In this document: positions 17,719 to 24,397 of the stretch, piece after piece
Layout of the letters: every line of letters starts with the position of its first letter
How positions within the stretch are numbered: position 1 is the first letter of the stretch
DNA from: Petrimonas mucosa
Lineage (GTDB): Bacteria; Bacteroidota; Bacteroidia; Bacteroidales; Dysgonomonadaceae
DNA length: 64,000 nucleotides
Reading direction: 5' to 3'
Assembly: GCF_900095795.1 (NCBI RefSeq)
Contig: NZ_LT608328.1
Span: 3,527,001-3,591,000, forward strand
Translations under genes and position numbers: made by a program
The notes under the pieces: model-generated
The model's input: the letters and a program-made list of their open reading frames with translations, nothing else
Told to the model about the DNA's origin: nothing
The model's database searches: none

Positions 17719-17806
17719 GGAGAGATGCTCGAGTGGTTGAAGAGGCACGCCTGGAAAGCGTGTATACGCCAAAAGTGTATCGCGGGTTCGAATCCCGCTC
17801 TCTCCG
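17719..17806 (+). tRNA. tRNA-Ser (anticodon GGA)
   Basis: An 88-nt class II tRNA. The acceptor stem is GGAGAGA (17719-17725) with TCTCTCC (17799-17805) and discriminator G. The anticodon stem is CACGC/GCGTG with loop CTGGAAA, so the anticodon is GGA (17753-17755). A long variable arm follows, and the T arm contains GGTTCGAATCC. The CCA end is not encoded. Confidence 0.96.
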
Positions 17807-20400: not shown

Positions 20401-20566
20401 TTCTTTAAAAAGCGAGATATCAAAAAAATTTATGAGACAAATATAAACAATTTGCGCAGTTTTGCAGTTTAGGGCATGTATAATCTTTTAGACTAAAGTT
20501 TTGTAATATGAAACATCCATGTTGAGAATTTAAAACATCCAAGGGAATGAAAATGGAAGATTTCCG

Positions 20567-20574
20567 TACATTTG
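20567..20574 (+). promoter_or_regulatory. -7 box of the IS110-type transposase (copy 1; repeated at 22223-22230)
   Basis: TACATTTG, a full TAnnTTTG match, 25 nt before the transposase start. It lies in the left end of the element. Two direct AAACATCCA repeats (20511 and 20533) precede it. Confidence 0.5.
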
Positions 20575-20599
20575 CCGTACTCATTGAACGGAATAATTT

Positions 20600-21861
20600 A
20601 TGGAATCACAAGTGTCATTCAACCAGGTCGTCTCCCGGGGATGCGGGATTGACGTCCACAAGAAGATGTTAGTGGCCACCATAAGTGGCGAAGGACTTAA
20701 TACGGAAACCCGTGAATTCGGGACCGTGACGCGCTCTTTGACAGAATTGAAAGACTGGTTATTGGAAAACAGGGTAACCCACGTTGTAATGGAGAGTACG
20801 GGAGTCTACTGGAAGCCTGTCTATCATGTCCTCGAACCCTCGGGATTGACGGTCTGGATAGTCAATGCCCGCCACGTGAAGAACGTCCCGGGGCATAAGA
20901 CGGACAAGCAGGACAGCAGGTGGCTGTGCAAGTTATTGCTTGCCGGCTTGCTAAAACCCAGTTATATTCCCCCTCGTGAACAACGGGAGTTACGGGATTT
21001 GACGCGTTACCGGAGCAAACTGGTACAGGATATCTCCTCGAACAAGAACCGTATCATCCGCATCCTGGAAGACTGCAATGTGAAACTTTCGAGCGTGTTA
21101 AGCGATACCTCGGGAGTAACGGCAACCAGACTGATCGACAAGTTGTGTCAGGGGAAAGAAGTTACCATGGGCGATATTGAAGAGGTATACCACAAAAAGA
21201 TAGAAGCCACCAAAGAGGAGCTTTTTGAAGCCTGTAACGGTTACATCACCGACCACCACATCTACCTGCTGGGCACTATCCGGGGGGACAACCACCACCT
21301 GGAGTCTCTCATACGGGATTTGGATGAAAAGATCAAACATGCCCTTGCCCCTTATGAGAATGCCCTGGAACGCCTGCGGGAGATCCCGGGATTGAACCGC
21401 AAGAGCGTGGAGGACCTTATCGCCGAGATCGGGCTGGATATGGATGTCTTCCCCAATGAGAATCATCTAAGCAGTTGGGTGGGCGTTTCACCGGGTAACA
21501 ACGAGAGTGCCGGTAAAAAAAAAACGGACGCACCACCCACGGGAACAAGCAGGCCAAATCCATCCTGAGCCAATCGGCATGGGCGGCGTCGCGGACAAAA
21601 GGCACGTTCTACCACGCCCGGTACCATCGCCTGGCAGCCCGCCGCGGCAAGAAAAGGGCCATAGTGGCCGTGGCCCACTCCATCCTCAAGTCGGTGTATC
21701 ATGTCTTAAAAGACGAAGTCCCTTACAATGAACTGGGAGCCGATTATTTAAACAGCCGGGTGGAAGCAAGGCGCAAAAGGTATCTGAAGGCAGAGTTGGA
21801 AAAGATGGGATATTGCGTCGAGCTTGTCCCGCATAATCCCGTCAGTCCTGCCGGAAGTTGA
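20600..21861 (+). pseudogene. IS110-family DEDD transposase, broken by a 1-bp deletion in a poly-A run
   Basis: The first 308 or so codons are the same as the intact copy. At 21515-21524 this copy has ten A where copy 2 has eleven, so the frame shifts after ESAGKKK and stops at 21568. The remaining C-terminal part stays readable in another frame to 21861. The lost part contains the SQSAWA motif that holds the catalytic serine of the Tnp20 domain, so the short product should be inactive. A sequencing or assembly error, or RNA polymerase slippage restoring the frame, are alternatives. Confidence 0.85.
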
Positions 21862-21894
21862 AAGTCTCCAACCCTGACATAAACGGGAAACAAG

Positions 21895-22035
21895 TACCAA
21901 AGGTCGATTTTTACTGGCGTACGGCGCGACAAGGCGTCTAAGTCGAATATGAAACTGACCTCAACAGGTAAGCACCCAAAGTTGTTGCACAAGAGCACGC
22001 ATATGAAATTTTAAACCCTTCTTACCTGTTTGTCT
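21895..22035 (+). ncRNA. Candidate bridge (seek) RNA of IS110-type element, copy 1
   Basis: The noncoding 3' part folds into two successive stem-loops. Loop 1 is closed by AGGTC (21901-21905) and GACCT (21957-21961), with an inner CGAC/GTCG stem. On its 3' side it contains AATATGAAAC (21946-21955). Loop 2 is closed by a perfect 10-bp stem AACAGGTAAG (21963-21972) and CTTACCTGTT (22021-22030), with an inner TTGT/ACAA hairpin. It contains CATATGAAA (22000-22008). AATATGAAA equals the reconstructed target at doxX and CATATGAAA equals the element's own right-left junction. In the IS110 family a structured RNA with a target loop and a donor loop guides recombination. Ends of the RNA are estimates. 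Confidence 0.65.
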
Positions 22036-22255
22036 TTCCGATAACCGGTGCATTTGTCCAAAAGATGAGTGCTGTCTTTTGTTTTGTCAAAACGAAGAAA
22101 TATAATTTTTAAAATGAATTAAATCATTAATTAATAGATATTTATATATCGAACAATTTACATATGAAACATCCATGTTGAGAATTTAAAACATCCAAGG
22201 GAATGAAAATGGAAGATTTCCGTACATTTGCCGTACTCATTGAACGGAATAATTT

Positions 22256-23518
22256 ATGGAATCACAAGTGTCATTCAACCAGGTCGTCTCCCGGGGATGC
22301 GGGATTGACGTCCACAAGAAGATGTTAGTGGCCACCATAAGTGGCGAAGGACTTAATACGGAAACCCGTGAATTCGGGACCGTGACGCGCTCTTTGACAG
22401 AATTGAAAGACTGGTTATTGGAAAACAGGGTAACCCACGTTGTAATGGAGAGTACGGGAGTCTACTGGAAGCCTGTCTATCATGTCCTCGAACCCTCGGG
22501 ATTGACGGTCTGGATAGTCAATGCCCGCCACGTGAAGAACGTCCCGGGGCATAAGACGGACAAGCAGGACAGCAGGTGGCTGTGCAAGTTATTGCTTGCC
22601 GGCTTGCTAAAACCCAGTTATATTCCCCCTCGTGAACAACGGGAGTTACGGGATTTGACGCGTTACCGGAGCAAACTGGTACAGGATATCTCCTCGAACA
22701 AGAACCGTATCATCCGCATCCTGGAAGACTGCAATGTGAAACTTTCGAGCGTGTTAAGCGATACCTCGGGAGTAACGGCAACCAGACTGATCGACAAGTT
22801 GTGTCAGGGGAAAGAAGTTACCATGGGCGATATTGAAGAGGTATACCACAAAAAGATAGAAGCCACCAAAGAGGAGCTTTTTGAAGCCTGTAACGGTTAC
22901 ATCACCGACCACCACATCTACCTGCTGGGCACTATCCGGGGGGACAACCACCACCTGGAGTCTCTCATACGGGATTTGGATGAAAAGATCAAACATGCCC
23001 TTGCCCCTTATGAGAATGCCCTGGAACGCCTGCGGGAGATCCCGGGATTGAACCGCAAGAGCGTGGAGGACCTTATCGCCGAGATCGGGCTGGATATGGA
23101 TGTCTTCCCCAATGAGAATCATCTAAGCAGTTGGGTGGGCGTTTCACCGGGTAACAACGAGAGTGCCGGTAAAAAAAAAAACGGACGCACCACCCACGGG
23201 AACAAGCAGGCCAAATCCATCCTGAGCCAATCGGCATGGGCGGCGTCGCGGACAAAAGGCACGTTCTACCACGCCCGGTACCATCGCCTGGCAGCCCGCC
23301 GCGGCAAGAAAAGGGCCATAGTGGCCGTGGCCCACTCCATCCTCAAGTCGGTGTATCATGTCTTAAAAGACGAAGTCCCTTACAATGAACTGGGAGCCGA
23401 TTATTTAAACAGCCGGGTGGAAGCAAGGCGCAAAAGGTATCTGAAGGCAGAGTTGGAAAAGATGGGATATTGCGTCGAGCTTGTCCCGCATAATCCCGTC
23501 AGTCCTGCCGGAAGTTGA
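22256..23518 (+). CDS. IS110-family DEDD transposase (intact)
   Basis: 420 residues. The N-terminal RuvC-like DEDD domain shows GCGIDVHKKMLVATI (first Asp), VMESTGVYW (Glu) and KTDKQDSRWLCKLL (Asp pair). A central helical region follows. The C-terminal Tnp20 domain contains LREIPGLNRKSVEDLIAEIG, then SWVGVSPG and SQSAWAASR with the nucleophilic serine. Such enzymes recombine DNA with the help of a bridge RNA. The reading frame passes through eleven A (23171-23181) as GKKKNGR. Confidence 0.93.
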   Translation: MESQVSFNQVVSRGCGIDVHKKMLVATISGEGLNTETREFGTVTRSLTELKDWLLENRVTHVVMESTGVYWKPVYHVLEPSGLTVWIVNARHVKNVPGHKTDKQDSRWLCKLLLAGLLKPSYIPPREQRELRDLTRYRSKLVQDISSNKNRIIRILEDCNVKLSSVLSDTSGVTATRLIDKLCQGKEVTMGDIEEVYHKKIEATKEELFEACNGYITDHHIYLLGTIRGDNHHLESLIRDLDEKIKHALAPYENALERLREIPGLNRKSVEDLIAEIGLDMDVFPNENHLSSWVGVSPGNNESAGKKKNGRTTHGNKQAKSILSQSAWAASRTKGTFYHARYHRLAARRGKKRAIVAVAHSILKSVYHVLKDEVPYNELGADYLNSRVEARRKRYLKAELEKMGYCVELVPHNPVSPAGS

Positions 23519-23551
23519 AAGTCTCCAACCCTGACATAAACGGGAAACAAG

Positions 23552-23692
23552 TACCAAAGGTCGATTTTTACTGGCGTACGGCGCGACAAGGCGTCTAAGT
23601 CGAATATGAAACTGACCTCAACAGGTAAGCACCCAAAGTTGTTGCACAAGAGCACGCATATGAAATTTTAAACCCTTCTTACCTGTTTGTCT
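23552..23692 (+). ncRNA. Candidate bridge (seek) RNA of IS110-type element, copy 2
   Basis: Same structure as in copy 1, shifted by 1657 bp. Loop 1 guide AATATGAAAC is at 23603-23612 between AGGTC (23558-23562) and GACCT (23614-23618). Loop 2 guide CATATGAAA is at 23657-23665 between AACAGGTAAG (23620-23629) and CTTACCTGTT (23678-23687). The 126 bp from here to doxX are AT-rich and contain no reading frame. Confidence 0.65.
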
Positions 23693-23820
23693 TTCCGATA
23701 ACCGGTGCATTTGTCCAAAAGATGAGTGCTGTCTTTTGTTTTGTCAAAACGAAGAAATATAATTTTTAAAATGAATTAAATCATTAATTAATAGATATTT
23801 ATATATCGAACAATTTACAT

Positions 23821-24237
23821 ATGAAAAGAGAGAAAAATTTATTAGATGCAGGTTTGCTCCTGCTTAGGATAGGTATCGGTATTTCGATCTTCTTTCACGG
23901 ATTGCCCAAGATCATGGCGGGGCCGGAGATGTGGACCGCCATCGGCGGCACGATGTCGAACCTGGGAATCACCTTTGCCCCCACCTTCTGGGGATTCATG
24001 GCGGCATTTGCCGAAACGGTAGGCGGAATACTGTTCGCACTGGGACTCTTCTTCCGACCGGCGGCCTTGCTGCTGATCGGAACCATGGTGGTGGCGCTGG
24101 TGATGCACTTTTCGCAAGGGGATGATTTCATGAAGTATGGGCATGCACTCGACCTGCTGATCGTCTTCATTGCCGGCCTTGTTACCGGTCCCGGCAACTA
24201 CTCCTTCGATGCCAAGTTTCTGCCGAAGCTAGCCTGA
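23821..24237 (+). CDS. DoxX-family inner-membrane protein
   Basis: 138 residues with four membrane helices: LLLRIGIGISIFFHGLPKI at the N-terminus, WGFMAAFAETVGGILFALGLFF, PAALLLIGTMVVALVMHF, and LDLLIVFIAGLVTGPG. The RIGIG...HGLPK and AETVGG segments are typical of DoxX/YphA proteins, whose biochemical role is poorly defined. The start codon lies within the ATATGAAA shared with the IS ends. The tandem insertion separates the gene from its former leader (before 20506) but leaves the protein intact. Confidence 0.9.
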   Translation: MKREKNLLDAGLLLLRIGIGISIFFHGLPKIMAGPEMWTAIGGTMSNLGITFAPTFWGFMAAFAETVGGILFALGLFFRPAALLLIGTMVVALVMHFSQGDDFMKYGHALDLLIVFIAGLVTGPGNYSFDAKFLPKLA

Positions 24238-24266
24238 GGAGTTTTGTCGTGAGACAAAATAAAAAA

Positions 24267-24362
24267 GGGTAAGCTTACTATATCGCGCCGCTACAACCAA
24301 TTACCCTTGCTTCGGTCAAGACCTGGGGGATTCATTGGGAGCTGGCCGTATAGGACTTACCC
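24267..24362 (-). ncRNA. ffs: Signal recognition particle RNA, small bacterial (4.5S) type
   Basis: On the minus strand a roughly 96-nt RNA with terminal pairing GGGTAAG (24362-24356) and CTTACCC (24273-24267). Its apical part reads CCAGGTCTTGACCGAAGCAAGGG. This looks like helix 8, with the GAAGCA asymmetric-loop motif bound by Ffh and an AGGT/ACC hairpin capped by CTTG. A run of six T follows the 3' end. A well-placed promoter precedes it. I identify it by motif and size, not by covariance search. Confidence 0.75.
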
Positions 24363-24367
24363 GACTG

Positions 24368-24397
24368 CAAAGATAACACTTTTTTTTTACCCGCAAA
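24368..24397 (-). promoter_or_regulatory. Promoter of the SRP RNA
   Basis: On the minus strand TTTG (24397-24394), 18 nt including nine A, then TATCTTTG (24375-24368). Transcription would begin almost exactly at the predicted RNA 5' end (24362). Confidence 0.7.

What the first reader, a model, noticed from the sequence alone, without database searches (positions are those of the whole stretch)
21895..22035. Structured RNA candidate in the IS110-type element with two guide loops matching target and donor
Seen directly: two stem-loops in the 3' noncoding part (closing stems 21901-21905/21957-21961 and a perfect 10-bp 21963-21972/22021-22030). Each holds a copy of the junction sequence. Loop 1 has AATATGAAA(C), equal to the sequence recovered at doxX when the element is removed. 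Loop 2 has CATATGAAA, equal to the element's own right-left joint. From the known bridge/seek RNA mechanism of IS110/IS1111 elements, these would be the target-binding and donor-binding guides. The same is found in copy 2 (23552-23692). Because AATATGAAA matches common Bacteroidetes gene starts, such an element might favour start codons.
Basis: partly seen in the sequence, partly recalled or inferred. Interest (0 to 1): 0.82.

Follow-up and report, generated by a model that had tools for sequence, protein, structure and literature searches.

The report
Start-codon-targeting bridge-RNA insertion element
A small jumping gene in a Bacteroidota bacterium appears to carry an RNA with two guide loops, one matching the place it lands (gene start codons of the form ATGAAA) and one matching its own ends; relatives with other landing sites have correspondingly changed loops, and many also have a conserved run of A that splits the recombinase gene.

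Summary
Reading it as the bridge/seek RNA of an IS110-type element is strongly supported by comparison. In 25 aligned elements the stems covary. Loop 2 tracks the element's right end (29 of 29 at -1, 27 of 29 at -2); loop 1 tracks the left target flank (24 of 27, 19 of 27). A scan of all RNA columns has these loop columns as its best hits. The start-codon idea holds: 14 of 23 checkable sites begin a long ORF, against 82 of 437 background ATGAAA sites, and the doxX site aligns with uninterrupted doxX starts in congeners. Unexpected: a conserved A-run after the catalytic serine puts the recombinase C-terminus out of frame in 19 of 21 lineages with the run, window copy 1 included. Two relatives hold 31 and 36 pattern hits for tnp-less ~91-117 bp derivatives. 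Transcription, slippage and trans-mobilisation are untested. New variant of a known kind.

The parts
20508..20513 (+). left copy of the shared ATGAAA (target/donor core region) at the doxX site; left target flank ...TTTTGTAAT
   Evidence: left flank aligns with DNA upstream of doxX in congeners
20514..22163 (+). IS110-type element, copy 1 (LE starts CATCCATG; RE ends TTTACAT before ATGAAA)
20600..21568 (+). recombinase ORF of copy 1, frame 0 only (322 aa); the remaining part (to about 21861) is in the shifted frame beyond the A10 run
21515..21524 (+). A10 run after the catalytic Ser-Ala-Gly codons (copy 1)
21901..21961 (+). target-binding stem-loop (loop 1) of the predicted bridge/seek RNA
21907..21913 (+). 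5' side of loop 1, AUUUUUA: candidate top-strand (right target) guide, not demonstrated
   Evidence: no covariation signal on the right flank
21946..21955 (+). guide 1 AATATGAAAC: bottom-strand pairing with left target + ATGAAA; last C matches the donor left end
21963..22030 (+). donor-binding stem-loop (loop 2), closed by a perfect 10-bp stem
22000..22008 (+). guide 2 CATATGAAA: matches the element's own right end
22164..22169 (+). ATGAAA at the copy 1/copy 2 joint (right end-core-left end)
22170..23820 (+). IS110-type element, copy 2 (one A longer than copy 1)
22256..23518 (+). recombinase gene of copy 2, 420 aa, read through in one frame; D18, E65, D102, D105, S303 placed by motif
23171..23181 (+). 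A11 run (copy 2): in frame here
23552..23692 (+). same predicted RNA in copy 2 (guide 1 23603-23612, guide 2 23657-23665)
23821..24237 (+). doxX-like gene (name taken from the finding) whose start codon ATGAAA is the insertion site and stands again after the insertion

Best explanation
The segment is the guide (bridge/seek) RNA of an IS110-family element whose long noncoding region lies 3' of the recombinase gene. Loop 1 holds a bottom-strand guide (AAT-ATGAAA) for the target; loop 2 holds a bottom-strand guide (CAT-ATGAAA) for the RE-LE donor joint. The DEDD/serine recombinase uses this RNA to exchange strands inside the ATGAAA shared by target and donor, so ATGAAA stands at both ends after insertion. 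At the right end it keeps the host gene's start codon and frame; at each end it can again serve as an acceptor, which would give head-to-tail arrays such as copies 1 and 2 here. Shown by comparison: boundaries, insertion at the doxX start, RNA stems, guide-target and guide-donor covariation, the start-codon bias. Inferred: transcription, RNP formation, strand exchange, the crossover point, the origin of arrays. In most relatives with the A-run, and in window copy 1, full-length recombinase could be made only by slippage or frameshifting on that run.
For: Recombinase: Pfam DEDD_Tnp_IS110 and Transposase_20, NCBIfam IS110 RNA-guided transposase, phmmer to IS621 8wt6 E 2.9e-13 and ISCro4 9t56 E 2.3e-10. 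Donor vs loop 2 at -1 29/29, -2 27/29; target vs loop 1 at -1 24/27, -2 19/27; 0 of 20000 permutations of guides among lineages reach these. Where the two loops differ (positions -2, -1, 0), the donor base equals loop 2 in 22 and loop 1 in 0 of 23, the target base equals loop 1 in 14 and loop 2 in 3 of 22. Scan of all columns: best target hit column 67 in loop 1 (20 of 22, permuted mean 8.9); best donor right-end hits columns 166 and 165 in loop 2 (25/25, 23/25). Four outgroups with other targets match their own left junctions over 7, 9, 8 and 8 contiguous bases, first left-end base included. Stems covary. doxX upstream DNA of 7 of 7 congeners aligns with the left flank better than all of 300 shuffles each. 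Start-codon bias 14/23 vs 82/437, Fisher p 2e-5.
Against: No expression data. Single-sequence folding energy is ordinary. The right flank shows no covariation with the RNA (best z 2.1). Target matches are imperfect: 3 of 27 sites mismatch loop 1 at -1, 8 of 27 at -2, only 7 of 27 match at -3; -4 never matches in either loop. Relatedness is not fully removed: crossed comparisons also exceed chance (target vs loop 2 at -2/-1, 33 of 54, was likewise never reached in 20000 permutations; the other crossed tests p 0.0003-0.0011), and in the scan the second-best target hit is a loop-2 column (z 2.9), while target -2 with its loop-1 column reaches only z 2.2. The loops and ends were sought with [AG]TGAAA patterns, so the ATGAAA core itself is by construction; only the neighbouring bases are tests. 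9 of 23 checkable sites do not start long ORFs; against TATGAAA (30/96) the excess is weaker (p 0.009), and for the own copies against ATATGAAAA (8/16) not significant (p 0.10).
Confidence: 0.93

Rival explanations
1. The two copies of the junction sequence in the noncoding region are DNA-level recombinase-binding repeats or relics of the ends, not RNA guides.
For: The sequences resemble the ends, and no transcript has been seen here.
Against: Both copies sit at the same place inside stems kept by compensatory changes. Loop 1 follows each element's left junction, including non-ATGAAA ones. Architecture and order agree with the experimentally shown seekRNA of IS1111-type elements (PMC11187229, sections read).
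Confidence: 0.03
2. The start-codon pattern reflects mainly purifying selection and motif frequency: insertions elsewhere are lost, and the RNA merely recognises a common 8-9-mer that is often a start.
For: AATATGAAAA is a start codon in 6 of 9, and ATATGAAAA in 8 of 16, occurrences in 460 kb of the own genome. Own copies (4/4) do not differ significantly from that (p 0.10).
Against: Outgroup elements with the same RNA architecture have cores of the kind nnnAAAA, so the ATGAAA core is a choice of this clade that itself steers it to start codons. The two readings are complementary rather than exclusive.
Confidence: 0.45
3. The split reading frame at the A-run is decay or sequencing error rather than programmed recoding.
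For: Window copy 2 and one other own copy have A11 and read through, so A10 copies could be recent mutants. A8 in two lineages and A9 in L056 give a third frame. L131 and L133 have an interrupted run and read through.
Against: A run of 8-10 A is kept in 21 lineages of 50-100% identity, while lysine is AAA in only 222 of 445 codons in the N-terminal parts of 18 of them. The C-terminal part in its own frame has no stops in 12 of 12 lineages, and third-position differences are the most frequent in 11 of 11 comparisons, e.g. 14/4/40. Seven outgroups with runs of 2-5 A match in one frame.
Confidence: 0.15

Closest known systems
IS1111-type elements with seekRNA (ISEc11, ISPa11, ISKpn4; Siddiquee et al. 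2024, PMC11187229)
   Same: Noncoding region and guide RNA 3' of the transposase gene; bottom-strand guide on the 3' side; guide changes with target between relatives.
   Different: Transposase 420 aa here against 330-350 aa there (paper); no subterminal inverted repeat above chance at the own ends; shared core is the hexamer ATGAAA; conserved A-run with shifted C-terminus. The paper's main text has no hit for frameshift, Bacteroid or ATG, and its one 'start codon' concerns the tnp ORF.
IS621 bridge RNA system (Durrant et al. PMC11208160; Hiraizumi et al. PMC11208158)
   Same: Two separate guide loops for target and donor; DEDD + serine recombinase alignable to 8wt6; a guide base that follows the other DNA, reminiscent of the handshake guides (guide-1 +1 base vs donor left end, 23/24; handshake passages).
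   Different: RNA in the right end, not the left; [quoted passage not shown] handshake bases lie in the right guides in IS621; recombinase 420 aa against a 328-residue chain; donor and target share ATGAAA here, a CT core there. Main text of PMC11208160 has no hit for start codon, frameshift or slippage.
IS families with programmed frameshifting (IS1, IS3, IS5, IS630)
   Same: A-rich slippery run; C-terminal part in another frame.
   Different: The passage seen of PMC5009743 names IS1, IS3, IS5 and IS630; the held 300,000 of 475,107 characters have no hit for IS110.

Membership tests
IS110 family (broad sense) | DEDD RuvC-like domain plus C-terminal Tnp domain with conserved serine (G--P----S motif) | tested here: met
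   Pfam PF01548 and PF02371 above cut-off; NF033542 above cut-off; D18, E65, D102, D105, S303 placed by motif beside the IS621 alignment. The motif here reads ...P----SA, not SG
IS110 family (broad sense) | Long noncoding region with a two-loop guide RNA | tested here: met
   covarying stems and guide covariation; existence of the transcript not tested
IS1111 group | Noncoding region 3' of tnp | tested here: met
   about 300 nt after tnp against 86 nt before it in the window copies
IS1111 group | Subterminal inverted repeats (7-17 bp) | tested here: not met
   best inverted match between the first and last 40 nt of the own element is 5 bp (57 of 60 shuffles as good); of 22 relatives tested, four (L057, L064, L077, L139) have 9-11 bp matches reached by at most 4 of 60 shuffles, without a shared placement except L064/L077
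IS1111 group | Transposase of 330-350 aa close to IS1111 over its full length | tested here: not met
   420 aa; not compared with IS1111 itself
IS1111 group | Top-strand match 5' of bottom-strand match in the RNA | tested here: inconclusive
   [quoted passage not shown] top-strand match not demonstrated
Programmed frameshift / transcriptional slippage genes | Conserved slippery run with a downstream frame under purifying selection | tested here: met
Programmed frameshift / transcriptional slippage genes | Trans-frame product made | not testable with these tools
   needs protein or RNA data

The most novel reading that the evidence does not exclude
A Bacteroidota lineage of RNA-guided IS110 recombinases has specialised on the start-codon hexamer ATGAAA. 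It lands in front of genes while giving each gene back its own start codon. It gates its recombinase by slippage on an A-run just past the catalytic serine, and it supports swarms of about 90-bp tnp-less, RNA-less passengers that depend on the guide RNA and recombinase of full elements in trans.
Probability: 0.5. Interest if true: 0.78.

Novelty: new variant of a known kind. Interest (0 to 1): 0.66.

Why it matters
It would be a guide RNA whose programmed target is a functional site of genes, the translation start, so that insertion spares the reading frame. Natural retargeting between relatives gives ready-made guide/target pairs for testing bridge recombinases with a 3' RNA, and the A-run makes a direct test possible of whether such recombinases are dose-controlled by recoding.

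Tried and rejected
Folding energy of a single sequence as evidence: not significant. Rfam: nothing for the segment at gathering threshold; at a relaxed threshold two hits far below their gathering scores. Right-flank (top-strand) guide: no covariation. Pairing of the donor left end with the 5' side of loop 2: looked for by eye without a consistent register; in the scan the best left-end hit is the +1 base with loop 1. Subterminal inverted repeats: none above chance in the own element. Viral contigs: no stretch matched the peptide patterns; phages: no match at E 1e-40; plasmids: 87 records at E 1e-40, all under 60% identity, the 20 listed being 39.6-43.8% and none of those 20 Bacteroidota. Own genome: 6 of 6 left-end matches are the known copies. 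For precedents of short derivatives I opened two papers from a listing of 12: in PMC5896051 (passages) QMITE2 is a target of IS1111; in PMC9769881 (passages) the MITE is tied to an IS982-family element. PMC13199778 (passages) was looked at and gave nothing used here.

Rows dropped: of 37 locus entries put into the end/loop table, L120 was missing from the input and L092, L085, L086, L080 and L138 had no loops in the held DNA; 31 remain. The table's patterns demand [AG]TGAAA in loops and ends, and C or T after it in loop 1; elements without ATGAAA were handled as outgroups. Duplicates of the same contig: L071/L072/L075 for L057/L063/L064. By eye, L135 and L142 show no such loops; L117 and L123 are fragments. 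No left flank: L058, L059, L078; no right end: L003. The inner ends of the window tandem (L001 left, L002 right) were left out of the counts. Start-codon count: L003, L058, L059, L073, L078, L131 and L134 could not be judged; for L132 the right end used lies after a short tnp-less unit, for L063 after a duplicated end. A-run list: of 35 loci asked, L096 was not in the input set, no run was printed for L131, L133, L134, L081 and L084, and for L137 the pattern caught a wrong place; these are not counted. L084 (43% identity, no A-run) also matches in two frames.

Full report
The window lies at G000:C1:3527001-3591000 of a 3.72-Mb single-contig genome. Two head-to-tail copies of one element (20514-22163 and 22170-23820) stand in front of a doxX-like gene; they differ by one A in a poly-A run. 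The noncoding segment occurs 6 times in the genome, and the 6 left-end matches belong to the same copies. The recombinase (22256-23518, 420 aa in copy 2) is an IS110-family protein, alignable to the IS621 and ISCro4 chains.

The fold is not unusually stable by itself. To learn whether the loops are guides I collected relatives from samples of 61, 101 (family), 393 (order), 395 (phylum) and 291 genomes (order of G681), partly overlapping, and from GTDB contigs (58 loci). Boundaries could be read in many because ATGAAA stands at both ends.

Guides: 31 element copies had readable loops. The base before ATGAAA in loop 2 equals the base before ATGAAA at the right end in 29 of 29, and the next base out in 27 of 29 (24 lineages). 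The same positions in loop 1 equal the left target flank in 24 of 27 and 19 of 27 (22 lineages). Guides permuted among lineages never reached these in 20000 trials. Crossed comparisons are weaker but also above chance, one of them likewise never reached, so relatedness plays a part. I therefore compared the loops only where they differ: the donor base equals loop 2 in 22 cases and loop 1 in none (of 23), the target base equals loop 1 in 14 and loop 2 in 3 (of 22). A scan of every alignment column against every flank position, not told where the loops are, has these loop columns as its best hits for target and donor right end; lesser hits include columns of the other loop. The stems are supported on the same alignment of 25. 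ATGAAA itself was part of the search pattern, so it is not counted as evidence.

The sharpest cases are relatives with other ends. L133 has a donor end CGTGAAA with loop 2 CGTGAAA, while its target is CATGAAA with loop 1 CATGAAA. Four outgroup elements (L083, L087, L140, L141) do not use ATGAAA. Their loop 1 matches their own left junctions over 7, 9, 8 and 8 contiguous bases, counting the first left-end base; among the eight elements put into that comparison each loop 1 has its longest contiguous match with its own junction. For loop 2 of these outgroups a matching right end was found only for L140 (TAGAAAAA sought).

One more base stands out: the base after ATGAAA in loop 1 (C or U, by construction of the pattern) agrees with the first base of the donor left end in 23 of 24 elements (permuted mean 14.4). 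A guide base serving the exchanged product would do this, as described for handshake guides in IS621 (PMC11208158, passages); in IS621 those bases lie in the right guides, so the correspondence is an inference. The right target flank shows no covariation with any RNA column; the U-run on the 5' side of loop 1 remains a candidate only.

Start codons: 7 of 9 congeners searched have the doxX-like gene. In 7 of 7 the 100 nt upstream of it align with the 100 nt left of the insertion better than all of 300 shuffles each, the weakest (L170) only narrowly; the alignments end 0-28 nt before the start codon in six and 55 nt in L170. Four of these genes begin ATGAGA, two ATGAAA. Of 23 sites with both flanks readable, 14 open an ORF of at least 100 codons with an in-frame stop within 25 codons upstream; in 460 kb of the own genome 82 of 437 ATGAAA sites do (Fisher p 2e-5). 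Against TATGAAA (30/96) the excess is smaller (p 0.009), and the own copies (4 of 4) cannot be told from ATATGAAAA sites (8/16, p 0.10). The background comes from the own genome only, while most sites come from others.

The recombinase frame: copy 1 and three other own copies have A10 and a frame break; two own copies, window copy 2 among them, have A11 and read through. This is not a local accident. Twenty-one lineages (50-100% identity) have a run of 8-10 A directly after the Ser-Ala-Gly (or similar) codons, A9 in 17 of 21. In 19 of the 21 the C-terminal third matches in another frame; L130 is continuous and L092 is a degraded copy without a C-terminal match. L131 and L133 have an interrupted run and read through. 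In the N-terminal parts of 18 of these ORFs lysine is AAA in 222 of 445 codons. The C-terminal frame has no stop in 12 of 12 lineages, and third-position differences are the most frequent in 11 of 11 comparisons. I read this as programmed recoding, most simply transcriptional slippage because run length and required shift vary; which mechanism is open. Listings for IS110 with programmed or ribosomal frameshifting or slippage (the first empty, showing 20 of 289) showed no title describing it; opened for passages were PMC3196728, which gives the IS110 elements of Amoebophilus one ORF, and PMC5009743.

Short derivatives: near L132, L139 and L065 are units of 91-94 bp with ATGAAA at both ends and no gene. 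A pattern made from their left part hits 36 places in G284 and 31 in G681, none in five other genomes tried, and none with the backward control pattern. Thirty of these places were fetched and gave 24 distinct sites; a right end was found for 17, and 10 of the 24 are followed at the shared ATG by an ORF of at least 100 codons; units are spaced 90-117 bp. They look like tnp-less passengers of these elements; that the hits not fetched are complete units was not checked. I saw no report of such derivatives of IS110 elements in the one listing made for it.

Classification: IS110 family in the broad sense, with a 3' RNA as in the IS1111 group, but with a longer recombinase and no subterminal inverted repeat above chance in the own element. 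I do not file it as IS1111. What is new against the sections read (PMC11187229 section 5 parts 1-2, sections 12 and 13; PMC11208160 sections 6, 7, 12) and passages seen (PMC11208158) is the start-codon specialisation, the split recombinase and the short passengers. Listings searched for the start-codon part were, with 20 papers shown in each. The library holds open-licence papers only, so absence there is weak evidence.

Noticed in passing
window 21515-21524 and 23171-23181; relatives: Conserved A8-A11 run just after the catalytic serine codons puts the recombinase C-terminus out of frame in 19 of 21 lineages with such a run; looks like programmed slippage or frameshifting.
   Followed up: partly
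G284 and G681 (loci L171-L200): 36 and 31 pattern hits for tnp-less units of about 91-117 bp with ATGAAA at both ends, partly in head-to-tail arrays, often directly before genes.
   Followed up: partly
L005 (own copy at 1.83 Mb): Right end reads TTTATATATGAAA instead of TTTACATATGAAA; the left flank also reads TTTATATATGAAA, as if target bases had been copied into the right end.
   Followed up: no
L003 (own copy at 3.16 Mb): Right end lost inside TATATCG; a G run follows shortly after: a truncated copy.
   Followed up: no
L063/L072: A right-end stretch ending CGTATGAAAC is present twice in tandem at the right border.
   Followed up: no
window 24263-24369 (-) and 17719-17806 (+): Bacteroidales small SRP RNA and a tRNA, both at gathering threshold.
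   Followed up: no
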